Assembly: GCA_902809825.1 (NCBI GenBank)
Contig: LR778114.1
Location: 1,860,001-1,924,000, forward strand
Length of the DNA: 64,000 nucleotides
Reading direction: 5' to 3'
Source of the DNA: Candidatus Hydrogenisulfobacillus filiaventi
GTDB taxonomy: Bacteria; Bacillota; Sulfobacillia; Sulfobacillales; R501
In this document: positions 3,091-59,990 of the stretch, in pieces
How positions within the stretch are numbered: the first letter of the stretch is position 1
Layout: every line of letters begins with the position of its first letter
The notes under the pieces: generated by a model
The model's input: the letters and a program-made list of their open reading frames with translations, nothing else
Databases searched by the model: none
Told to the model about the DNA's origin: nothing
Translations under genes and position numbers: made by a program

Positions 3091-3903
3091 CTAGCCGTGC
3101 CGCACCAGCATCCCTCGCCGCTCCGCCAAGCTCAGGAACGCATCCACATGATCGTTCAGATCCCCGATGGCCGCCGCCTCCGCATCGTCCGGATCGAGGA
3201 GGCTGGCCATCTCATGGGCCACGCTGGTCCGCAGCTCGGCCTCCGCCTGCTCCCGGCTTGGATAGGTGGCGACGAACTCCGATTCGATCGGGTTGTCCGT
3301 CGCCGTGGCCCACAAGCCCCCCGCCGTCGGCGCCAGCCAGAACCCTGTGACGGCCTCCGGTCGATCCGCCAGCAACGTCCATCGCAGGATTGGCTGCCCC
3401 ACGTTCTCCTCCGGCGTCTCCAGCATCGCCGCGATGATTTTCCTCACCTGCGACGCCTGATTCGCCTCATCGCCTCCTTTCCGATGCCGCCGGATCCACA
3501 CCAGCAGAGCCTCCCGCCATGCCGTGTCGCTATCGCCTTCCGATCCCACCCACCCGGCCACGTTCGTCAGCAGCTGGCCCAGCCGCTGGTTCGGGGTCGT
3601 CCGCCATGCCAGGTCCAGCGCCCGCAACACCGTCTCCTGCTCGACGCCCAGTGGGGGGGCAGCCGCCGCGCCCAAGGCCAGCAGAGCCTGGTACCACTCC
3701 TCGTCGAAAGGATGCCACCAGCTCCGCCAGCCCCTGGATTCGGCCGTCTCGGCCACCACCCGGATGATCGGCCATTCGCTGTGCGCCATCCAGGCTCGAC
3801 GCAGGGCCGCCACCATCCACGGGATCCGATCCGGATTGAGGCGGAACCATCCGATCTCCACAGGAACAGGTAGAGTGCTCGGCAGATCTCCCATTGAACT
3901 CAT
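3091..3903 (-). CDS. Hypothetical protein, coupled to the cytosine methyltransferase gene
   Basis: This 270-residue protein was not identified. Its ATG overlaps the stop of the methyltransferase gene as ATGA, so translation is probably coupled. The part around residues 85-115 (VLRALDLAWRTTPNQRLGQL) resembles a small helical motif seen in DUF1040/YihD-like proteins. The C-terminal third is acidic. A role accessory to DNA modification is only inferred from position. Confidence 0.65.
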   Translation of the reverse strand: MSSMGDLPSTLPVPVEIGWFRLNPDRIPWMVAALRRAWMAHSEWPIIRVVAETAESRGWRSWWHPFDEEWYQALLALGAAAAPPLGVEQETVLRALDLAWRTTPNQRLGQLLTNVAGWVGSEGDSDTAWREALLVWIRRHRKGGDEANQASQVRKIIAAMLETPEENVGQPILRWTLLADRPEAVTGFWLAPTAGGLWATATDNPIESEFVATYPSREQAEAELRTSVAHEMASLLDPDDAEAAAIGDLNDHVDAFLSLAERRGMLVRHG

Positions 3904-5066
3904 GCGCTATCGCCTCCTACACCAGGTCGGGCATCCCCCACGCCATCCAAGCCGGGCCAATCCGAGGCCAGGATCGCCTGGGGGTCCAACCCCTCCAGTG
4001 CGGCCCGGACGCGGGCCAGCACCCACCACCCCATCGGCACGGCGACGGCGTTGCCGATCAGCCGATAGCGCACGGAGTCGACCAGCCGCTTGGCCGGCTC
4101 CCCCTCGGTCCAGTCGTTTGGGAATCCCTGCAGGCGTTCCGCCTCCCTCGGCGTCAGCCGGCGCACCGTTGTGCGACGTCCCGGCGACGGATGCGGCACT
4201 ATCAAGGTGTCCGCTGACGGATCCCCCCGCCATTTCGTCGGGACGGTCAGCGCGACCGCTTGCCGCTCCGTCGCGGTAAGGGCGAACATGGGATCGGACG
4301 ATCCTCGCACGCGCACATCGCGTCCGATGCCCCGCGCCCCGTGATTGACGTGCCGGATGCTGCCGAAGATCATCGGCCCTTCTCCGCCACAGGCGCCACA
4401 GGTCGCTGACCCCAGGTCCCCCACGATCCCGCGTCGTCGGCCCCAGCGGCCATGGTCGTCAGCGCCGTTCGCAGATCCTCCGGCAGCGTCCTGCCCCGCG
4501 CCACGGCCCGGCGCAGGATGCCCCGCGCGGCCAGGGGACTCAAGCAGTATTTGGCCGGAGCGTTCTCCTCCAAAATCCGCGACAAGGAAGACACGACGGC
4601 GCTGTTGGGGGACTCCGAAATATTGCGCGTCCAGCACTCGCCACGCGAGTTCACGAGCCCCGAGGTCCCGAAACGCGGCGAGGACAGCCGCGAAATCTCG
4701 TCCACGGTTGGTGGAAAGAGCTCCAGGGACGTTCTCCCATACAGCCAGAGCAGGGCGGACTCCGGCGATGATCCGGATCGCCTCCCAGAACAGACCACTG
4801 CGGCTTCCCTCCAATCCAGCCCGAGGACCGGCCACGGAGAAATCCTGGCATGGGCTGCCGAAGGCGACCACGTCCACCGGCTCCAGGTCGCCGGGATGCA
4901 CCCGCCTGATGTCCCCGAACCGGCGCACGGACGGCCAGTGCCGTGCCAGGACGGACGTGGCGTGGCGGTCGATCTCGATCTGCCAGGCGACCTCCATGCC
5001 CGCCTGCTCGGCGGCCAGATCGAAGCCGCCGATGCCGGAGAAGATGCTGCCGATCCTGATGGGCAT
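3900..5066 (-). CDS. DNA (cytosine-5) methyltransferase
   Basis: This 388-residue enzyme transfers methyl from S-adenosylmethionine to C5 of cytosine. The family motifs appear in order: FSGIGGFD (I, SAM binding), GSPCQDFSVAG (IV, catalytic Cys), ENVPG (VI, Glu), QRRRVFLV (VIII), a variable recognition region with two CxxC-like elements, RRLTPREAERLQGFP (IX) and GNAVAVPM (X). The chosen ATG begins MPIRIGSIFSGIGGFD, typical for the family; longer upstream frames are not needed. No cognate endonuclease is adjacent, which fits an orphan phage enzyme for evading host restriction. The GGGTGCGACA motif lies 31 bases upstream. Confidence 0.92.
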   Translation of the reverse strand: MPIRIGSIFSGIGGFDLAAEQAGMEVAWQIEIDRHATSVLARHWPSVRRFGDIRRVHPGDLEPVDVVAFGSPCQDFSVAGPRAGLEGSRSGLFWEAIRIIAGVRPALAVWENVPGALSTNRGRDFAAVLAAFRDLGARELAWRVLDAQYFGVPQQRRRVFLVADFGGERSGQILLESPGRAGHPAPGRGAGQDAAGGSANGADDHGRWGRRRGIVGDLGSATCGACGGEGPMIFGSIRHVNHGARGIGRDVRVRGSSDPMFALTATERQAVALTVPTKWRGDPSADTLIVPHPSPGRRTTVRRLTPREAERLQGFPNDWTEGEPAKRLVDSVRYRLIGNAVAVPMGWWVLARVRAALEGLDPQAILASDWPGLDGVGDARPGVGGDSA

Positions 5067-22386: not shown

Positions 22387-22687
22387 CGGCTCTCCTTCCG
22401 ACCGGCCGTTGATCACCCGCATCGTCACCATACCCCGCGCCTCCCTCGTCGGTTTCGGGTCGGCCATCATCGCCGCCGTTTGGTGGAGCATCCCACGTTC
22501 GGGGCGATCTGTCAACGGTTCGGGCTGTGGGTTTCCGACCGCATCGCGAAGGATCCGTTCCTACGGACGTCCGGACGACCGGACCCGCCCGGTTCAGCCC
22601 GCTTCGGGCCGGTTTCCGGGGGGAACGACCCCAATGGACCACGCGGGGTCCCCATATCTTGTGGTATTCTTAGGAGGCATACTACAT
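22387..22687. promoter_or_regulatory. Divergent intergenic region before nrdD
   Basis: This 300-base gap separates divergent genes and must hold promoters in both directions. A TATTCT box is at 22665-22670 and AGGAGG at 22672-22677 serves nrdD. Inverted CCGG-rich sequences around 22590-22620 could fold. No clear NrdR box was seen. Confidence 0.35.
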
Positions 22688-24481
22688 ATGGGGGGGATCG
22701 CCATGAATCTGGTAGACGCCTACCTGGATCGCTCGGATTGGCGGGTCCAGGAGAACAGCAACATGGACTACAGTCTGCAGGGACTTAACACCTATCTGTC
22801 CGGTGCCGCTGTGGCGGATCACTGGCTGACGAGGGTGTATCCTGCTCCCATCGCGGAGGCGCATCGCTCCGGGGATCTGCACATCCATGATCTGGGCACC
22901 CTCGGACCCTATTGCGTGGGCTGGGACCTGTACGACTTCCTGCGCCGCGGCATCGCCGGCGTCCGGGGCAAGATCACCTCCACCCCGCCCCGCCATTTCC
23001 GCACGGCCCTGGGGCAGCTGGTCAACCTGCTGTACACCCTGCAGGGGGAGGCGGCGGGTGCGCAGGCGGTGTCGAACCTCGACACCCTCCTGGCCCCCTT
23101 CATCCGCGCCGACGGCCTCTCCTACGCCGACGTCAAGCAGGCCCTGCAGGAGTTCGTCTTCAATTTGAACGTCCCTACCCGGGTGGGCTTCCAGGCCCCC
23201 TTCACCAACATCACCCTGGACGTCACCGTCTCCCCCACCTACAAGGACTGGCCGGTGGTCATCGGCGGCGAGGACCAGGACACCACCTACGGCGACTACC
23301 AGGCGGAGATGGACCTGTTCAACCGCGCCTTCTGTGAGGTGATGCTGGAGGGCGACGGGCAGGGCCGGGGCTTCACCTTCCCCATTCCCACCTACAATGT
23401 GACCCGGGACTTCCCCTGGGACTCGGAGGTGGGCCAGGCCATCGCCCGCATGACCGCCAAGTACGGGACGCCCTATTTCGCCAACTTCGTGAGCGCGGAC
23501 CTGAACCCCGAGGACGCCCGCTCCATGTGCTGCCGGCTGCGTCTCGACCTCCGGGAGCTCAGGAAGCGGGGCGGCGGGCTCTTCGGCGCCAACCCCCTCA
23601 CCGGCTCCATCGGGGTGGTGACCATCAACCTGCCCCGCCTCGGGTACCTGTCCCGGAGCCGGGAGGAGTTCTTCCTCCGCCTCGCGCACCTGATGGACCT
23701 GGCCAAGGAGAGCCTGCTCGTGAAGCGCCGGCAGGTGGAGGAGTGGACCCGGCAGGGGCTCTACCCCTACTCCGCCGTTTACCTGGAGCCGGTGCGGGGG
23801 GCGTCGGGCGAGTACTGGAACAACCACTTCAACACCATCGGCCTGGTGGGCATGCAGGAGGCGGCCATGAACCTCCTGGGCCGGGGGATCGCGTCCGAGG
23901 CCGGGCACGCCTTCGCCCGCGAGGTGCTGGACTTCATGCGCGAGCGCCTGGTGCGCTACCAGGAGGAGACCGGCCAGCTCTTCAACCTGGAGGCCACCCC
24001 GGCCGAGGGCGTGAGCTACCGCTTGGCGCGCCTGGACAAGGAGCGCTACCCCGGCATCGTGCAGGCCGGAGACCCGGAGGGGGATCCTTACTACACCAAC
24101 AGCACCCATCTGCCGGTGGGCTACACCACCGACCCCTTCGAGGCCCTCGACCACCAGCACGACCTGCAGACCCGCTACACCGGCGGCACCGTGCTGCATC
24201 TCTTCTTAGGCGAACGGGTGGAGGATCCGCGGGTGATCGGGGAGCTGGTGACCGCCATCACCCGCAACTACGGCATCCCCTACTTCACCTTCACCCCCAC
24301 CTACAGCATCTGCCCCCGCCACGGCTACCTGGCGGGCGAGCAGTGGGAGTGCCCCTCCTGCCACGCCCCCACCGAGGTCTGGAGCCGGGTGGTGGGCTAC
24401 TACCGCCCGGTGCAGAGCTGGAACCGCGGCAAGCGGCAGGAGTTTTCCGATCGCCGCGCCTACGCCGTCCAGATGGATTGA
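22688..24481 (+). CDS. nrdD: Anaerobic ribonucleoside-triphosphate reductase (class III)
   Basis: The 597-residue enzyme makes deoxynucleoside triphosphates from ribonucleotides under anaerobic conditions with a glycyl radical. MCCRLRLD (Cys281-Cys282) holds an active-site Cys. C542-x2-H545 and C555-x2-C558 form the C-terminal metal site, and RVVGY puts the radical Gly at 570. The N-terminal ATP cone is absent, so allosteric activity control is probably lost. The ATG at 22688 lies ten bases after AGGAGG; 22703 is an alternative. No nrdG activase gene is in this window. Its very C/G-rich third positions look more uniform than its neighbours. Confidence 0.93.
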   Translation: MGGIAMNLVDAYLDRSDWRVQENSNMDYSLQGLNTYLSGAAVADHWLTRVYPAPIAEAHRSGDLHIHDLGTLGPYCVGWDLYDFLRRGIAGVRGKITSTPPRHFRTALGQLVNLLYTLQGEAAGAQAVSNLDTLLAPFIRADGLSYADVKQALQEFVFNLNVPTRVGFQAPFTNITLDVTVSPTYKDWPVVIGGEDQDTTYGDYQAEMDLFNRAFCEVMLEGDGQGRGFTFPIPTYNVTRDFPWDSEVGQAIARMTAKYGTPYFANFVSADLNPEDARSMCCRLRLDLRELRKRGGGLFGANPLTGSIGVVTINLPRLGYLSRSREEFFLRLAHLMDLAKESLLVKRRQVEEWTRQGLYPYSAVYLEPVRGASGEYWNNHFNTIGLVGMQEAAMNLLGRGIASEAGHAFAREVLDFMRERLVRYQEETGQLFNLEATPAEGVSYRLARLDKERYPGIVQAGDPEGDPYYTNSTHLPVGYTTDPFEALDHQHDLQTRYTGGTVLHLFLGERVEDPRVIGELVTAITRNYGIPYFTFTPTYSICPRHGYLAGEQWECPSCHAPTEVWSRVVGYYRPVQSWNRGKRQEFSDRRAYAVQMD

Positions 24482-32140: not shown

Positions 32141-32554
32141 TTAGCCGGGATGTTTGAGCGGATTGCGGAAGCGCACGCCCTCGATTACCGCCTCCGTCGG
32201 GCCATCCTCGGTGAGCATTTCCTGCAACCCGTGTTCCCGGGCCACCGCCCACTGCATGGCGTCCCAGAAGCTGAGGACGTGCGCGGCCACCGCCGCCAAG
32301 GCCGACGCGACGGTTTGAGCCGAAGGGGCGAGGACCGTCCACGACCGTTGATACGCTGCGACCAAGTCCCGGCATTGCGCGGGCGGCATGCCCTCGCGTA
32401 GGGCGACGGCGCTGAATTCCGCCAGACTCTGCACGGTTAACGCGGCATCGCCCCGCACCGCATCCAACACGGCGATCGCTTCCTGCTGGCGTTCCCGCGT
32501 GGTGCGCAGGCCCGCCGCATAGACGAGTAAATTCGTGTCAACGAGGGCGCGCAT
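32141..32554 (-). CDS. PIN-domain toxin (VapC-like)
   Basis: The 137-residue protein starts MRALVDTNLLVYAA, with the first catalytic Asp in VDTN. Later acidic positions are E49 (SLAEFSAV) and D93 (SFWDAMQW). PIN toxins are Mg-dependent ribonucleases that cut tRNA or rRNA. It overlaps the antitoxin gene, the usual VapBC order. An ATG seven codons upstream is possible. It would stabilise the element in the host. Confidence 0.85.
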   Translation of the reverse strand: MRALVDTNLLVYAAGLRTTRERQQEAIAVLDAVRGDAALTVQSLAEFSAVALREGMPPAQCRDLVAAYQRSWTVLAPSAQTVASALAAVAAHVLSFWDAMQWAVAREHGLQEMLTEDGPTEAVIEGVRFRNPLKHPG

Positions 32555-32795
32555 CGGATTCCAGCCGGCCGGCATACGCGTCTTCCCGCCGGAATGGGGT
32601 GTGGGCGGAGGCGGCCGGCAGTGCGAGCAGGCGGGCCTTCAAATCCGCCCAAGCCTGGTCCGCTTCCTGGGCGGTTTGCCATTGGCGTGTCAGGGCTTCC
32701 CGGATCACGGCCGCCTCGGATTTATGCGCCCGCCGGGCAATCTCCTTGAGCCGCGCGTTGTCCTCGGCCCGCAGGTAAATCTGCTTGCGGATCAT
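32538..32795 (-). CDS. Ribbon-helix-helix antitoxin (VapB-like)
   Basis: The 85-residue protein starts MIRKQIYLRAEDNARLKEIA with a following RAHKSEAAVIREAL, the ribbon-helix-helix pattern. The C-terminal half (ADQAWADLKARLLALP) is the likely toxin-binding part. GGAGGAAGAG precedes the ATG. It should bind VapC and repress the shared promoter. Confidence 0.8.
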   Translation of the reverse strand: MIRKQIYLRAEDNARLKEIARRAHKSEAAVIREALTRQWQTAQEADQAWADLKARLLALPAASAHTPFRREDAYAGRLESDARPR

Positions 32796-32949
32796 GACGG
32801 CTCTTCCTCCCGCCCTGAGGTAGACTACACCACTAGTATACATTACGTGCGCATCCTGCGGGCATAGCCCGGGCGCGGTGCGGCCCGGCTCCTGGCCAGG
32901 CTGATCCTAAGGCGCAAAAGTCCCCTTGGGGTGCGGCGGCAGATGGATA

Positions 32950-36074: not shown

Positions 36075-36150
36075 TGGTCGGGACGGCGGGACTCGAACCC
36101 GCGGCCTCCGGCTCCCAAGGCCGGCGCGCCGCCATCTGCGCCACGTCCCG
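36075..36150 (-). tRNA. tRNA-Pro (UGG)
   Basis: All arms fold: acceptor CGGGACG/CGTCCCG, D stem GCGC/GCGC, anticodon stem CCGGC/GCCGG with loop CTTGGGA (anticodon TGG), T stem GCGGG/CCCGC with TTCGAGT loop, discriminator A and an encoded CCA. The C at position 1 is typical for tRNA-Pro. It is separated from the next tRNA by three bases, so both come from one transcript. Confidence 0.92.
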
Positions 36151-36153
36151 GTT

Positions 36154-36228
36154 TGGAGCTCCCAGGCGGACTCGAACCGCCATCTCCCGCGTACGGGGCG
36201 GGTGCCCTGCCGATTGGGCAATGGGAGC
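36154..36228 (-). tRNA. tRNA-Thr (CGU) with C33
   Basis: Acceptor GCTCCCA/TGGGAGC, D stem GCCC/GGGC, anticodon stem CCCGC/GCGGG and T stem GGCGG/CCGCC all pair; discriminator T and CCA are encoded. The loop CCCGTAC gives anticodon CGT (Thr, codon ACG). Position 33 is C, whereas almost all tRNAs have U33. The variable loop has four bases. Confidence 0.85.
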
Positions 36229-37044: not shown

Positions 37045-38127
37045 TCAGCCCGCCTTCCCCTGCTCCGCCACCCAGGCCTCCAGCGCCGAGCGGAACGCGG
37101 CCAGTCCGGCCGTCGGCACCCACACCACGGGGGCATGGATGCCAGCCAGCTGCTCGTCCATCCGGTGCTTGGCCCAGGCGGTCACCTCCACCACCAGATC
37201 CCATTGGCCGTTGGGCACCCGACTCCCGGTTACGCCATCCAGCTGCCGAACGGTCTCCGCCCCCATGGCGCGCAGGATGGCCTCGTAGCCCAGGCGATGC
37301 GACGGATCCCCGATCACCAGCACCCGGCGCCCGAGCAGCGGAAGCGGCGCCTCGTCCTGGCGGCTGGCGGTCCGGTCCGCCCACCGCCGCAGGCAGTCGG
37401 TGTGGTTGCGGATCAACGCCTCCATGGCGGTGTCCGCGTCGGCCCGGATCTCGGCAATCTCCCGCTCCGCGTCCGCCAGCCGCGCCTCGGCCGCGGCCAG
37501 CTCGGCCCGCAGCCGATCCCTGTCCGCCAGCAGGTCATCCACCAAGCGGGCGTCCGACCCGTCCCGGATCGCCCCCAGCCACGCCAGAACGGGCTGCAGA
37601 TCCAGCCGCGCCTCCCGCACCGCCGTCGCCAGCTCCTCGGAGCTCCAGCCCTCCAGGAACCGGATGGCGGTGGTCTCCGCATCGTCCAAATCCGGATGAT
37701 TGGCCAGCAGCCATGCCGCCATCAGCGGGTCCACCCTCCTGGCCTGCCAGAACTCCGACCACGCCTCCACATCCCCAACGGGCAGACCCCGTCGCAGGGC
37801 GGCCCGGATCTCGGCCTCCAGGAAGGCCCGGGTCGTCGGCAGCAGGGCCCGGCTCAGCAGGAGCCCACGGATTTGATCCGGGGGCAGTCCCCGAAAGGAG
37901 GCCGGAATCCGTCTCGCCTCCTCCCCGCCGGCACGCGACACGGCCAACCTCCATCGCAAACCGAGCGCGTGCAGATCCGCGATCGGCATCTCGGCCAGCC
38001 ATCCCGTCAGCACGGAGACGTACGCCACATCCTCGTCCGTAAACCGCCGCTGCACCAGATCATCCCACCGCTGGGCCCCGATCCCGACCGCCTTCGCGTC
38101 GTCCCGTTGTCGCTTGCCCTTCATCAC
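37045..38127 (-). CDS. Coiled-coil protein with DUF2325 domain
   Basis: The 360-residue protein has an N-terminal helical region, a coiled coil (about residues 195-245, DRLRAELAAAEARLADAERE) and a C-terminal domain with GRRVLVIGDPSHRLGYEAIL and WDLVVEVTAWAKH, matching DUF2325, a small Rossmann-like domain seen in phage and mobile-element proteins. The IsrB element is inserted right before its ATG, so its original leader may have been replaced. The function is unknown. Confidence 0.75.
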   Translation of the reverse strand: MMKGKRQRDDAKAVGIGAQRWDDLVQRRFTDEDVAYVSVLTGWLAEMPIADLHALGLRWRLAVSRAGGEEARRIPASFRGLPPDQIRGLLLSRALLPTTRAFLEAEIRAALRRGLPVGDVEAWSEFWQARRVDPLMAAWLLANHPDLDDAETTAIRFLEGWSSEELATAVREARLDLQPVLAWLGAIRDGSDARLVDDLLADRDRLRAELAAAEARLADAEREIAEIRADADTAMEALIRNHTDCLRRWADRTASRQDEAPLPLLGRRVLVIGDPSHRLGYEAILRAMGAETVRQLDGVTGSRVPNGQWDLVVEVTAWAKHRMDEQLAGIHAPVVWVPTAGLAAFRSALEAWVAEQGKAG

Positions 38128-38141
38128 TTTGCGGCGGCGCG

Positions 38142-38170
38142 GAGACCCCCGGCTTCAGCCGCGGGGAGGA
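38142..38170. repeat. Right-end hairpin of the IsrB element
   Basis: The stem CCCCCGGCTTCAGCCGCGGGG overlaps the last codons of IsrB and lies 15-40 bases before the DUF2325 ATG. Its form matches the other IS200/IS605-type hairpins in this window. Confidence 0.6.
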
Positions 38171-39192
38171 GCGCCGCCTTTCCTCCTTTCTTTCGGTCTC
38201 CACACGCGCCAAGAACATGGCGCTAGCGCAACGATGTCCTCACGGCGGGCATTTTGTGTTAGCCGTCTCCCGTCCCGCATTGCGTGCAGGCTAAGTCGAT
38301 TCCCCATATAACCACCCACGTAGCAAAAACCGAACTTTGGATGGAGCACTTGCGTTCCACGACGCAGACCCAGGCTGACCGTCCCGCCATGCCGCCGCCG
38401 CCCGCCGCCCTTGGCGGGTTGCCGCAGATGGAGTGACCGGCGCCGGAAGCGCAACGGGGCCATCCGGAGGATTGGGGTGTGGTCCGGCACGGCGCCGCCC
38501 ACGACGGAGGCCGCCAGCACCCAGGCATCCACGCAGTGCGCCCAGAAGGTCTCGCGAGACTTGTTTGCGGTTTTGGGCAGTCCCCGGGCGTCGCGGAGCC
38601 GCTTGGTGTCGTATCCCGGCACCATCGTCACCGGAGCCAGGCGTCCCAGCTCCATGGAAAACCAGCGTTTGCCGGCTTCCAATGGGGAGAAGCGGACGTT
38701 CCAGCGGTGTTGACCGGGCCGGGTTTGGGCCGCCACGTCCTCGACCACGAAATGGGTGATGGGGTACAGCGAAGCCAGAAACCCGGCGATCCGGAGCTTC
38801 CACCCCCATCGAGCCCGGGTGGATGGCGGCAGGCCGCCCCGTGCCCGGTTGGCCCGGGGCGGACGGCAGGGCGTCTTCCGGTACCGGCGCCCCCGCCGCA
38901 TGTCCCGCCGGGCGGTCACGGCCTCCCGCACATGCGTGACCGCGTCCACGTGGAGGTTGACGAACGTGCGCCGCGCGTCTTTGACCGCGATCCCTTCCCA
39001 TTTCGAGCCCGGGTCGATGCCGCAGGCGACGGGTTGCGCCGCGCCATCCGTGCGGTCCAGAAGCTGGAGGTAGAAGAAGCCCTTCCGAAACCGCCGCACG
39101 GCTCGGCCTCGGCGAACGAGTTCTCGCGCTCGGGCCGGGTGGCAGGGCATGAGGGGCGTTCCGCGAGCGGAAAGAACCGGTATCCATCGCAT
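38155..39192 (-). CDS. isrB: IsrB, RNA-guided RuvC nickase-like protein (HNH-less IscB relative)
   Basis: The 345-residue protein has the PLMP domain (GTPLMPCHPARARELVRRGR, residues 11-30), RuvC-I (CGIDPGSKWEGIAV, D60), an Arg-rich bridge helix (about 95-118), RuvC-II (THFVVEDVAAQ, E151) and RuvC-III (HCVDAWVLAASV, H219 and D222). Only about 65 residues separate RuvC-II and III, so the HNH domain of IscB is absent, which defines IsrB. The length is typical. Catalytic residues are intact, so RNA-guided nicking of the non-target strand is expected. An omega RNA precedes it. Confidence 0.9.
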   Translation of the reverse strand: MRWIPVLSARGTPLMPCHPARARELVRRGRAVRRFRKGFFYLQLLDRTDGAAQPVACGIDPGSKWEGIAVKDARRTFVNLHVDAVTHVREAVTARRDMRRGRRYRKTPCRPPRANRARGGLPPSTRARWGWKLRIAGFLASLYPITHFVVEDVAAQTRPGQHRWNVRFSPLEAGKRWFSMELGRLAPVTMVPGYDTKRLRDARGLPKTANKSRETFWAHCVDAWVLAASVVGGAVPDHTPILRMAPLRFRRRSLHLRQPAKGGGRRRHGGTVSLGLRRGTQVLHPKFGFCYVGGYMGNRLSLHAMRDGRRLTQNARREDIVALAPCSWRVWRPKERRKGGAPPRG

Positions 39193-39460
39193 GGAGAGTT
39201 ACCTCCCCGTCTCCCGTGGTATACGGGGCAATTGCTCCCCTTCGCCGCTGGCCGCCGGAGAGGCCGGGGACTAGGGGAGCATCCCCGGCATCCAGGCCCC
39301 GCCACGGGCGGGCGGCTCAGCTGCCTTCAAACGCCCCCGGAGACCCGTCGCCGGGTCCGGTGGCTAGGCCAGGCTAGTCGTTCGCGGTCAGGGACCGCCT
39401 CGCGGTTTCGTGGGTGGCAAGACCACTACTCCCGCAAGCCCCGGGCTTTGGCCCTGGGGT
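39193..39460 (-). ncRNA. Omega RNA of IsrB
   Basis: On the leftward strand the 270 bases before the IsrB start are gene-free, GC-rich and highly foldable. The part next to the start (GGGGAGCAATTGCCCCGTAT, then a GGGAGACGGGGAGG element) resembles the conserved 3' pseudoknot end of IscB omega RNA as I remember it. The 5' end begins with the left-end hairpin at 39433-39458. The guide would be the roughly 15-20 bases further upstream (about 39459-39480), taken from flanking element DNA. Confidence 0.75.
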
Positions 39461-39664
39461 ACTTGACCATCCAGCCTCTTCCTCCTCCCAGCCAGCAGCC
39501 CGTAATGGGCTCCGCACGGCGTTCCGCCCGGCCCCCGGGCTCCAGTGCCCCACAGACGCCCACAGAAGCCGCACAAGGCGACTGGATCCGGGGGTGGCTA
39601 TTCCAACCCCCAGTCCCCGATTCACTCGCGGCACGGACGTTCTATGGCGTTCTGTGGCGATGGA

Positions 39665-58436: not shown

Positions 58437-59612
58437 ATGGGACAGGATCGCCCGCGGGAGCCGCATGCGCGGGACCCGCGCCGCCTGCCGTCGGGGCGGT
58501 GGCAGGCCCGGGTGGCCTGGTGGGATGAGCACGGGCGGCGGCGGGAGAGCGCCAGAACCTTCGCCTCCCATCGGGAGGCCCGCGCCTGGGCCCGGGAGGA
58601 GGAGCGGCGGCTCCGGGAGCTGGGGCGTCCTCCGGCGGAGGACGCCCTGGCGTCCTATCTGGATCGGTGGCTGGAGTCGATGGTCGGTCGGGTGCGGCCG
58701 ACCACGCTGCGCAGCTACCGCGCCATGGCGGCCCATGCTCGGGCCGCCCTCGGGGATCGCCCCTTGACCCGGCTCACGCCCTTGGACCTGCAAGCCTGGC
58801 TGGCGGACCTCCAGGCGGCTGGCAAAAGCCCCCGCACGGCGCAGTATGCCTACGCGGTGTTGCGACACGCCCTGCAGGACGCCGCAGACTGGGGCCTCCT
58901 GCCCGCGAATCCGGCCGCACGGGCGAAGCCTCCCCGGGTGCCCCGGCGGGAACTGCGGGTGCCGACCCCGGAGGAGGCCCGCCGGCTGCTCCAGGCGGCG
59001 GAGGGTCATCGGCTCTACGCGCTATGGGCCTTTCTGGCCACCACCGGCACCAGGCGGGGCGAAGCCCTGGGCCTGCGGTGGGAGGATGTGGACTGGCAGC
59101 GTCGGGTCATCCTGGTGCGGCAGGCGCTGACGGGCACTGGATCCCGCAAGGCCCTGGGGCCGGTGAAGACCGATGGAGGTCGGAGGTCCGTCGCACTCGA
59201 TCCCTGGATGGAGGACGTGCTGCGCCGTCATCGGGAGGAGCAGCGCTTGGACCGTCTGGAGGCTGGCGCTGGATGGGAGGAGACCGGATTGGTGTTCACC
59301 ACCCGGCGCGGTCGTTGGCTGGATCCCGGCAACGTGCTGCGGGACTTCAAGATCCTCTTGGCGAAGGCTGGCCTGCCAACCACCTATCGCATCCACGACC
59401 TCCGCCACGCCATGGCCACGGCCTGGCTCGCGGCCGGGGTCAGCCCCAAGGTGGTGTCGGAGCGGCTGGGGCACGCCAGCGTGGCCTTCACGCTCCAGGT
59501 GTATGGCCATGTTCTACCCAACGCCCAAGCGGAGGCGGCAGCGCGGATGGTCCGCCTGCTGGCGGACGATCTCCACCAGCCCCCTGCGGACGGTGGGACC
59601 GGCGATGCGTAG
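58437..59612 (+). CDS. int: Tyrosine recombinase / phage integrase
   Basis: The 391-residue protein has an N-terminal arm-binding region, a core-binding domain (about 70-165) and the catalytic domain with R206, K244, H320-x-x-R323, H346 and Y356. GGAGGAGG lies before the ATG. It reads towards the tRNA remnant at 59911 about 300 bases away, the standard int-att arrangement. It should integrate the element into that tRNA gene and, with the excisionase, remove it. Confidence 0.92.
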   Translation: MGQDRPREPHARDPRRLPSGRWQARVAWWDEHGRRRESARTFASHREARAWAREEERRLRELGRPPAEDALASYLDRWLESMVGRVRPTTLRSYRAMAAHARAALGDRPLTRLTPLDLQAWLADLQAAGKSPRTAQYAYAVLRHALQDAADWGLLPANPAARAKPPRVPRRELRVPTPEEARRLLQAAEGHRLYALWAFLATTGTRRGEALGLRWEDVDWQRRVILVRQALTGTGSRKALGPVKTDGGRRSVALDPWMEDVLRRHREEQRLDRLEAGAGWEETGLVFTTRRGRWLDPGNVLRDFKILLAKAGLPTTYRIHDLRHAMATAWLAAGVSPKVVSERLGHASVAFTLQVYGHVLPNAQAEAAARMVRLLADDLHQPPADGGTGDA

Positions 59613-59854: not shown

Positions 59855-59910
59855 TCAGGCGAGATCCCCGTCCACCCCGACACGGGGGAAACGATCGATG
59901 GGTGGACTCA

Positions 59911-59951
59911 CATTCAAGAGGTCAGAGGTTCGATACCTCTCGCGCCCACCA
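59911..59951 (+). other. tRNA 3'-end fragment, probable attachment site
   Basis: The sequence has TCAAG (3' side of an anticodon stem), the variable loop AGGTC, the T arm AGAGG-TTCGATA-CCTCT and the acceptor end CGCGCCC-A-CCA. The 5' half of a tRNA is not found upstream, so the crossover probably lies near the anticodon loop and the intact tRNA should sit at the other end of the element. Amino acid identity cannot be fixed (a Met-type acceptor is possible). Confidence 0.7.
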
Positions 59952-59954
59952 TAT

Positions 59955-59990
59955 GAACCCCGTATCCGGCAAGGGAGGCGGGGTTCTTTT
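59955..59990 (+). terminator. Terminator after the tRNA end
   Basis: GAACCCCG pairs with CGGGGTTC and is followed by TTTTCTTT. It is the host terminator of the tRNA transcript. From here to 60273 no gene can be supported. Confidence 0.7.

What the first reader, a model, noticed from the sequence alone, without database searches (positions are those of the whole stretch)
38130..39480. IsrB nickase-like gene with intact catalytic residues and an upstream omega RNA inside a prophage-like element
Seen: PLMP domain, RuvC-I/II/III residues D60, E151, H219 and D222, an Arg-rich bridge helix, no room for HNH, and a 270-base foldable leader whose start-proximal part resembles the IscB omega RNA 3' end. 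Known: IsrB proteins are RNA-guided nickases encoded by IS200/IS605-group elements. Inference: the guide comes from element DNA just upstream of the left-end hairpin, so the nuclease may nick the empty site on sister or related phage genomes and favour its own retention. The host range and target motif of this variant appear unexplored.
Basis: partly seen in the sequence, partly recalled or inferred. Interest (0 to 1): 0.85.

Follow-up and report, generated by a model that had tools for sequence, protein, structure and literature searches.

The report
RNA-guided nickase docked before start codon
This is a small selfish DNA element carrying an intact RNA-guided DNA-nicking enzyme (IsrB) and its guide RNA, and comparison with about 150 relatives shows that these elements usually slot in exactly in front of genes' start codons, so that the guide RNA records the gene's ribosome-binding region and the start codon itself is the motif the enzyme reads.

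Summary
Window 38125-39467 (minus strand) is a 1,343-bp IS200/IS605-type element with an intact 345-aa IsrB (closest solved structure DtIsrB; D60/E151/H219/D222 kept in 147 of 149 relatives) and an upstream omega RNA, proven by covariation (26 of 41 pairs with compensatory changes, including a pseudoknot). The guide is the 20 bases left of the element. The carrier is not a prophage but a ~133-kb integrative conjugative element with 82-bp tRNA-Val attachment repeats. New here: of 48 distinct IsrB insertions with a recognisable right end, 45 have ATG 8-21 nt past the end hairpin, and 36 of these open a gene (ligA, leuA, phage head and polymerase genes). For two relatives, joined flanks match empty sites in sister genomes across the junction, guide and ATGA motif included. 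The residue that reads motif base 4 covaries with it (Gln/A 49 of 49; Lys or Arg/G 5 of 6). So the motif is usually a start codon, the guide is the ribosome-binding region, and the element often supplies a replacement ribosome-binding site or an overlapping stop codon. I found no report of this in the library searched. Activity is untested; no empty site was found for the window's own copy.

The parts
38125..39467 (-). whole IsrB element (1,343 bp), from GTCAAGTACC to the base before the target ATGA
   Evidence: both ends coincide with the ends of 73% similarity to L002, whose flanks are unrelated; same ends in relatives
38155..39192 (-). IsrB RNA-guided nickase, 345 aa; catalytic D60, E151, H219, D222; TAM-reading R310 and Q313
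39193..39467 (-). omega RNA scaffold (about 275 nt; conserved core 39205-39379)
   Evidence: covariation; HEARO hit in relative L154
39468..39487 (-). 20-nt guide GAGGAGGAAGAGGCTGGATG, copied from the left flank; holds the ancestral Shine-Dalgarno-like sequence of the downstream gene
   Evidence: sequence; unique in the genome at up to 3 mismatches; position by analogy with the 20-nt guide of DtIsrB (PMC9581776)
39434..39467 (-). left-end hairpin, also the first stem of the omega RNA; 91% identical over 34 nt to the right end of an IS605-type TnpB element of the same ICE
   Evidence: read
39237..39277 (-). omega RNA pseudoknot: hairpin loop 39273-39277 pairs with 39237-39241
   Evidence: helix 8: 4 of 5 pairs with compensatory changes
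38133..38178 (-). right-end hairpin (8-bp GGCGGCGC outer stem and inner hairpin)
   Evidence: DNA fold -20 kcal/mol, z -3.3; homologous in relatives
38182..38188 (-). element-borne Shine-Dalgarno AAGGAGG at the foot of the right-end hairpin; with the hairpin closed it lies 8 nt from GTG 38127 and 11 nt from ATG 38124
   Evidence: sequence; ribosome binding is inference
38121..38124 (-). target-adjacent motif ATGA = start codon of the downstream gene
37045..38127 (-). downstream ICE gene (360 aa from GTG, 359 from the ATG of the motif); no confident family
58437..59612 (+). tyrosine integrase of the carrier ICE
59905..59986 (+). right attachment repeat of the ICE (82 bp, identical to the tRNA-Val 3' end at G000:1786936)

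Best explanation
A non-autonomous IS200/IS605-type element encoding an apparently active IsrB nickase and its omega RNA, inserted in an ICE directly before a gene's start codon. Its ends would be recognised in trans by one of two Y1 transposases (TnpA) in the same ICE (inferred). On insertion, the 20 bases on the left become the guide and the first bases on the right (ATGA) are the target-adjacent motif. Any DNA copy without the element, such as the excised sister copy or a related ICE, would present guide + ATGA and be nicked some 8-11 nt before the start codon, within the ribosome-binding region; repair from the filled copy would restore or spread the element (inferred from TnpB/IscB work). 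Because the motif NTG(A/G) can be a start codon, most surviving insertions lie between a gene's Shine-Dalgarno sequence and its start codon, and the element limits the damage by carrying its own Shine-Dalgarno or by overlapping its stop codon with the start. Shown: protein, catalytic residues, omega RNA, ends, start-codon position, motif code, and empty sites in two relatives. Inferred: nicking, transposition in trans, retention or homing, and translation from the element's Shine-Dalgarno.
For: IsrB identity. Omega RNA. Ends. Position before ATG: 45 of 48 distinct right ends have ATG 8-21 nt after the hairpin, against 10-13 of 48 in equal windows further on; 36 of 48 open an ORF of at least 60 codons, against 2-7. 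In joined flanks 27 of 43 sites look like a real start codon (long ORF after, stop within 30 codons before) against 10.3% of ATGR in the same DNA, p 1e-16. Shine-Dalgarno in the last 20 nt of the left flank in 22 of 43, against 7 of 43 further left, p 4e-6. Genes include ligA, nadA, leuA and an ABC ATPase, and phage head, polymerase and endolysin genes. Empty sites: joined flanks of L066 match two sister genomes at 94% and 93% with guide 20/20 plus ATGA; joined flanks of L105 (leuA) match sister genomes at 88-98% across the junction, ATGA kept in all 8 read. Motif code: Q at position 313 with A 49 of 49, K/R with G 5 of 6, Fisher p 1.7e-6; the equivalent DtIsrB Q326 reads base 4 and DtIsrB nicks 8-11 nt upstream of the motif (PMC9581776). 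Element-borne SD: distinct sites in genome G156 read AGGAGCTAAC(N)TCT|ATG before different genes. IsrB stop codon within 15 nt of, or overlapping, the ATG in 14 of 43. Trans partner: two TnpAs and a matching end.
Against: No activity was measured. No empty site was found for the window's own copy, so its right boundary rests on L002 and on relatives. In the window the joined frame stays open 58 codons upstream of ATG, so the 'closed frame' test is not met there (weak in 69% GC DNA). 12 of 48 insertions are not at a clear gene start: 9 have an ATG without a long ORF and 3 lack the ATG; L183 looks intragenic. The Shine-Dalgarno is seen in only half of the left flanks. A co-directional gene close downstream is almost as common for 13 IscB loci (8 of 13) as for IsrB (101 of 127), so gene density alone explains part of the picture; the fixed spacing, empty sites and motif code do not depend on it. 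The thresholds of the end finder were set on these data.
Confidence: 0.78

Rival explanations
1. Plain selfish IsrB element: the transposase recognises only the tetranucleotide beside the motif, insertion is random over all such sites, and the start-codon pattern is merely what survives selection in gene-dense DNA. There is no adaptation to start codons.
For: 9 of 48 motifs are ATGs without a long ORF, so the motif alone suffices; insertions inside genes would be lost; a close downstream gene is also common for IscB.
Against: Distinct insertions in one genome share an element-borne Shine-Dalgarno spaced for the next ATG and 14 of 43 elements have their stop codon within 15 nt of, or overlapping, the ATG, which suggests adaptation; even so, the start-codon position itself would stand.
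Confidence: 0.4
2. Domesticated regulator: the IsrB-omega RNA complex binds or nicks guide + ATGA near a ribosome-binding region to control the empty allele of an incoming ICE or phage, serving the carrier rather than the element.
For: Guide lies at the ribosome-binding region; jumbo-phage copies (L033, L167-L169) keep the protein and an omega-RNA-like leader but no recognisable end hairpins, as expected of domestication.
Against: RuvC residues are kept in 147 of 149, unlike known dead TnpB-type regulators (own knowledge); the window copy keeps both ends; its guide has no other match in the genome.
Confidence: 0.12
3. Inactive relic: without its own TnpA the element is stuck and IsrB is on the way out.
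For: No TnpA within the element; one copy in the genome.
Against: ORF, catalytic residues, omega RNA fold including the pseudoknot, and both hairpins are intact; TnpA genes with a matching end lie in the same ICE.
Confidence: 0.1

Closest known systems
DtIsrB (Desulfovirgula thermocuniculi IsrB, PDB 8dmb) and orthologues CwIsrB, DsIsrB, CsIsrB, K2IsrB, BbIsrB (PMC9581776)
   Same: Domain order (PLMP, RuvC with bridge helix and no HNH, C-terminal TAM-interacting domain), RuvC residues, R and Q of the TAM reader, omega RNA of about 280-300 nt with a 20-nt 5' guide, motif class NTGA/NTG.
   Different: About 30-33% identical in protein; natural insertion sites and their coincidence with start codons are not described in the passages of that paper that I searched ('start codon' occurs 0 times).
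IscB (OgeuIscB and others) with HEARO RNA (RF02033)
   Same: Same N-terminal and RuvC fold; related 5' omega RNA sharing the signature hairpin; same element type.
   Different: IscB has an HNH domain and cuts both strands; NCBIfam IscB score 110 is below its cut-off of 175.
IS200/IS605 TnpB elements and their 'peel-and-paste' or gene-drive behaviour (e.g. PMC11870625)
   Same: Guide records the insertion site; empty copies are the target; ends with hairpins cut by Y1 TnpA; seamless excision.
   Different: Here the guide is at the 5' side (left flank) and the motif on the right; a nick rather than a double-strand break; the motif is usually a start codon.

Membership tests
IsrB | N-terminal PLMP/RRXRR region followed by a split RuvC nuclease | tested here: met
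   Pfam RRXRR 1.8e-36; alignment to 8dmb over residues 4-315
IsrB | intact RuvC catalytic residues | tested here: met
   D60, E151, H219, D222, kept in 147 of 149 relatives
IsrB | no HNH domain, about 350 aa | tested here: met
   345 aa; no HNH hit; model covers DtIsrB nearly end to end
IsrB | 5' omega RNA with conserved stems and pseudoknot | tested here: met
IsrB | NTG-type TAM read by C-terminal Arg and Gln | tested here: met
   R310 and Q313 conserved; insertion sites ATGA; residue-motif covariation; binding itself not tested
IsrB | RNA-guided nicking of the non-target strand | not testable with these tools
   needs the purified complex
IscB | HNH domain | tested here: not met
   NCBIfam IscB 109.8 bits against cut-off 175
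HEARO RNA (RF02033) | score above Rfam's curated cut-off | tested here: not met
   window 18.2 against 83; relative L154 108.9: the window RNA is of the same broad kind but does not reach this model's cut-off
IS200/IS605-type element | subterminal hairpins, no target duplication, empty site = joined flanks | tested here: met
   ends; empty sites of relatives L066 and L105, not of the window copy
IS200/IS605-type element | own Y1 transposase | tested here: not met
   none inside the element; two elsewhere in the ICE: non-autonomous
prophage | head, tail or terminase genes in the carrier | tested here: inconclusive
   none among the carrier proteins searched, but not every gene was searched
integrative conjugative element | integrase, att repeats at a tRNA, conjugation ATPases | tested here: met

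The most novel reading that the evidence does not exclude
IsrB elements as a family have made the start codon their docking signal: the motif read by the nickase (NTG plus A or G) is usually the start codon of a gene, the guide is that gene's ribosome-binding region, and the element's right end has evolved to hand translation back to the interrupted gene (own Shine-Dalgarno, hairpin-shortened spacing, or stop/start overlap), so that even essential host and phage genes can carry it.
Probability: 0.6. Interest if true: 0.75.

Novelty: new member of a known kind. Interest (0 to 1): 0.6.

Why it matters
It suggests a natural reason for the NTG-type motifs measured for IsrB nickases: they are start codons. 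It supplies a natural code between a protein residue and a motif base (Gln-A, Lys/Arg-G) across dozens of elements, which helps in choosing or predicting nickases by motif. It predicts that a mobile element can sit in front of essential genes while sparing their translation, and that RNA-guided nicking of empty copies falls in the ribosome-binding region. Both can be tested in laboratory strains.

Tried and rejected
Rfam HEARO at its curated cut-off does not find the window RNA; replaced by the covariation test. Empty site of the window's own copy: none by protein relatives of either neighbour gene or by an exact joined pattern in viral contigs. L176 neighbour gene: only its own contig. Flank of L067 in its family: no useful match. 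Prophage context: set aside after the att repeats and conjugation genes. The simple test 'is there a close co-directional gene downstream' does not separate IsrB from IscB, so it is not used as evidence. Early end finders missed or misplaced hairpins and were replaced. Two key papers (Altae-Tran 2021; the 2023 Nature paper on TnpB/IscB) are not held in the library, so the novelty claim is limited to what is held.

Full report
1. What is there. The ORF at 38155-39192 on the minus strand encodes 345 residues. It matches Pfam RRXRR (1.8e-36), scores below the IscB cut-off (109.8 against 175), and its best solved relative is DtIsrB, PDB 8dmb (2.9e-40, aligned over residues 4-315). The AlphaFold model from 18 natural sequences (mean pLDDT 80.6) has 8dmb as its best match over residues 2-334 (VIA-align Z 26.2, 311 residues, rmsd 4.8). 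There is no HNH domain.

2. The omega RNA. Rfam's HEARO model gives only a partial match to one hairpin (39263-39288, 18.2 bits, cut-off 83). A relative 53% identical in protein (L154) has a leader scoring 108.9 bits. In a 17-sequence alignment the consensus structure has 36 nested pairs. With one pseudoknot added (loop 39273-39277 with 39237-39241) there are 41 pairs: 96.7% of cells are paired (75.4% in shuffles, at most 44% when partners are slid), 26 pairs show compensatory changes, and the covariation score is 0.618 against 0.206 in shuffles. Four of the five pseudoknot pairs vary in a compensatory way. The RNA is real.

3. The element. An IMG/VR contig (L002) carries a copy 73% identical over 1,347 bp with unrelated flanks; similarity starts at GTCAAGTACC (39467) and ends around the TGATGA at 38121. 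The protein, RNA and both end hairpins are inside. No transposase is inside. Two IS200/IS605 TnpA genes lie in the same ICE, and a TnpB element there ends in a hairpin 91% identical over 34 nt to this element's guide-side end (read). Mobilisation in trans is therefore likely but inferred.

4. The carrier. The genome holds an 82-bp perfect repeat, once at the 3' end of a tRNA-Val (G000:1786936) and once at window 59905, just past a tyrosine integrase. Between them lie VirB4/TraC-like and FtsK-like ATPases, a lytic transglycosylase, two Tad-like secretion ATPases, an actin-like partition protein and replication genes. This is an integrative conjugative element of about 133 kb, not a prophage. 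I found no head, tail or terminase gene among the proteins searched, but not every gene was searched.

5. Where these elements sit. I gathered 80 loci from named genomes and 64 from viral contigs. A finder based on the right-end hairpin alone gave 48 distinct insertions. 45 have ATG 8-21 nt past the hairpin; equal windows further on have 10-13. In 36 of 48 that ATG opens an ORF of at least 60 codons, against 2-7 in control windows. For 43 elements both ends could be set. Joining their flanks, 27 of 43 look like a true start codon (long ORF after, stop within 30 codons before), against 10.3% of 3,539 other ATGA/ATGG in the same DNA (p 1e-16). A Shine-Dalgarno match of at least 4 nt lies in the last 20 nt of the left flank in 22 of 43, against 7 of 43 further upstream and 19.8% background (p 4e-6). 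The genes are real: DNA ligase, prephenate dehydrogenase, ABC ATPase, quinolinate synthase, response regulator, 2-isopropylmalate synthase; in phages, head morphogenesis, DNA polymerase, thymidylate kinase, endolysin. More distant IsrBs show the same by eye, and in Microcystis phage Ma-LMM01 the annotated start of gp170 is at the junction.

6. Empty sites. For L066 (before an ABC transporter gene) the joined flanks match two sister genomes at 94% and 93% with no gap at the junction; the 20 nt before the junction are identical in both and are followed by ATGA. For L105 (before leuA) the joined flanks match sister genomes at 88-98% across the junction. Of the eight read, one has guide 20/20, one lacks a single base, five have 2-3 mismatches and one is more diverged; ATGA is kept in all eight, with GGGAG just upstream. 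These comparisons show the ends, seamless insertion, the guide rule and the start-codon position directly, though in relatives 54% and 49% identical to the window protein, not in the window copy.

7. A motif code. In DtIsrB, R323 reads the G and Q326 the fourth base of the motif (PMC9581776). The aligned residues here are R310 and Q313. Over 57 elements, Gln goes with A in 49 of 49, while Lys or Arg goes with G in 5 of 6; Fisher p 1.7e-6. This is independent support that the ATGA/ATGG at the right end is the motif. The paper reports NTG motifs for four IsrBs, NTGA for DtIsrB and NTGG for another; it does not use the words 'start codon'.

8. Sparing the gene. Distinct insertion sites in one Ardenticatenales genome end in AGGAGCTAAC-N-TCT|ATG (with small variants) before different genes, so the Shine-Dalgarno belongs to the element. 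In 14 of 43 the IsrB stop codon lies within 15 nt of the ATG or overlaps it, which would allow translational coupling. In the window, AAGGAGG (38182-38188) stands at the foot of the right-end hairpin; with the hairpin closed it is 8 nt from GTG 38127 and 11 nt from ATG 38124. That the ribosome uses it is inference.

9. Mechanism. Best reading: TnpA in trans moves the element as single-stranded DNA; insertion leaves the gene's ribosome-binding region as guide and its start codon as motif. Empty copies (after excision, or in an incoming related ICE) would be nicked 8-11 nt before the motif, as measured for DtIsrB, and repaired from the filled copy. The guide has no other match with up to three mismatches in the genome, as expected of a self-sparing selfish element. 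TnpB elements are reported to act as gene drives on plasmids this way (PMC11870625); that a nickase suffices is not shown here.

10. Limits. No activity data. No empty site for this copy. The finder's thresholds were set on the data. Nine of 48 sites have an ATG but no long ORF, three lack the ATG, and L183 is probably inside a gene. The joined frame of the window copy is open 58 codons upstream. A close downstream gene is common for IscB too (8 of 13 against 101 of 127). Some elements in the counts come from the same genome or related phages, so the p-values are optimistic. Novelty is judged only against the library searched; two central papers are not held.

11. Verdict. The locus is an ordinary and intact member of the IsrB family in an ICE. 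What deserves attention is the rule it led to: IsrB elements usually dock in front of start codons, and the motif their nickase reads is the start codon.

Noticed in passing
G000:1786936-1919986 (window up to 59986): Integrative conjugative element of about 133 kb in tRNA-Val with 82-bp att repeats and two copies of a Tad-like pilus operon (L195 and L049).
   Followed up: partly
window 36075-36228 (-): Two tRNA genes, Pro(tgg) and Thr(cgt), carried inside the ICE.
   Followed up: no
window 22634-24481 (+): Full-length anaerobic ribonucleotide reductase (NRDD) on the strand opposite to most ICE genes.
   Followed up: no
window 32141-32843 (-): Probable PIN-domain toxin with a ribbon-helix-helix-like antitoxin, read from sequence only.
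   Followed up: no
L033 (LR745208.1, 485-kb phage), L167-L169: Jumbo-phage IsrB with an omega-RNA-like leader but no recognisable end hairpins and Arg at the motif-reading position: possibly domesticated.
   Followed up: partly
L048 3978-4625 (+), next to TnpA 3577-3975 (-): Short (215 aa), probably truncated TnpB whose element end nearly matches the IsrB element's guide-side end.
   Followed up: partly
L034 (Microcystis phage Ma-LMM01), upstream of the IsrB leader: Several tandem copies of the GTCACTAACCCC left-end motif upstream of the IsrB leader, as if guide ends had been stacked.
   Followed up: no
L173 about 2711-2745: Tandem duplication of the left-end hairpin directly upstream of the omega RNA.
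   Followed up: no
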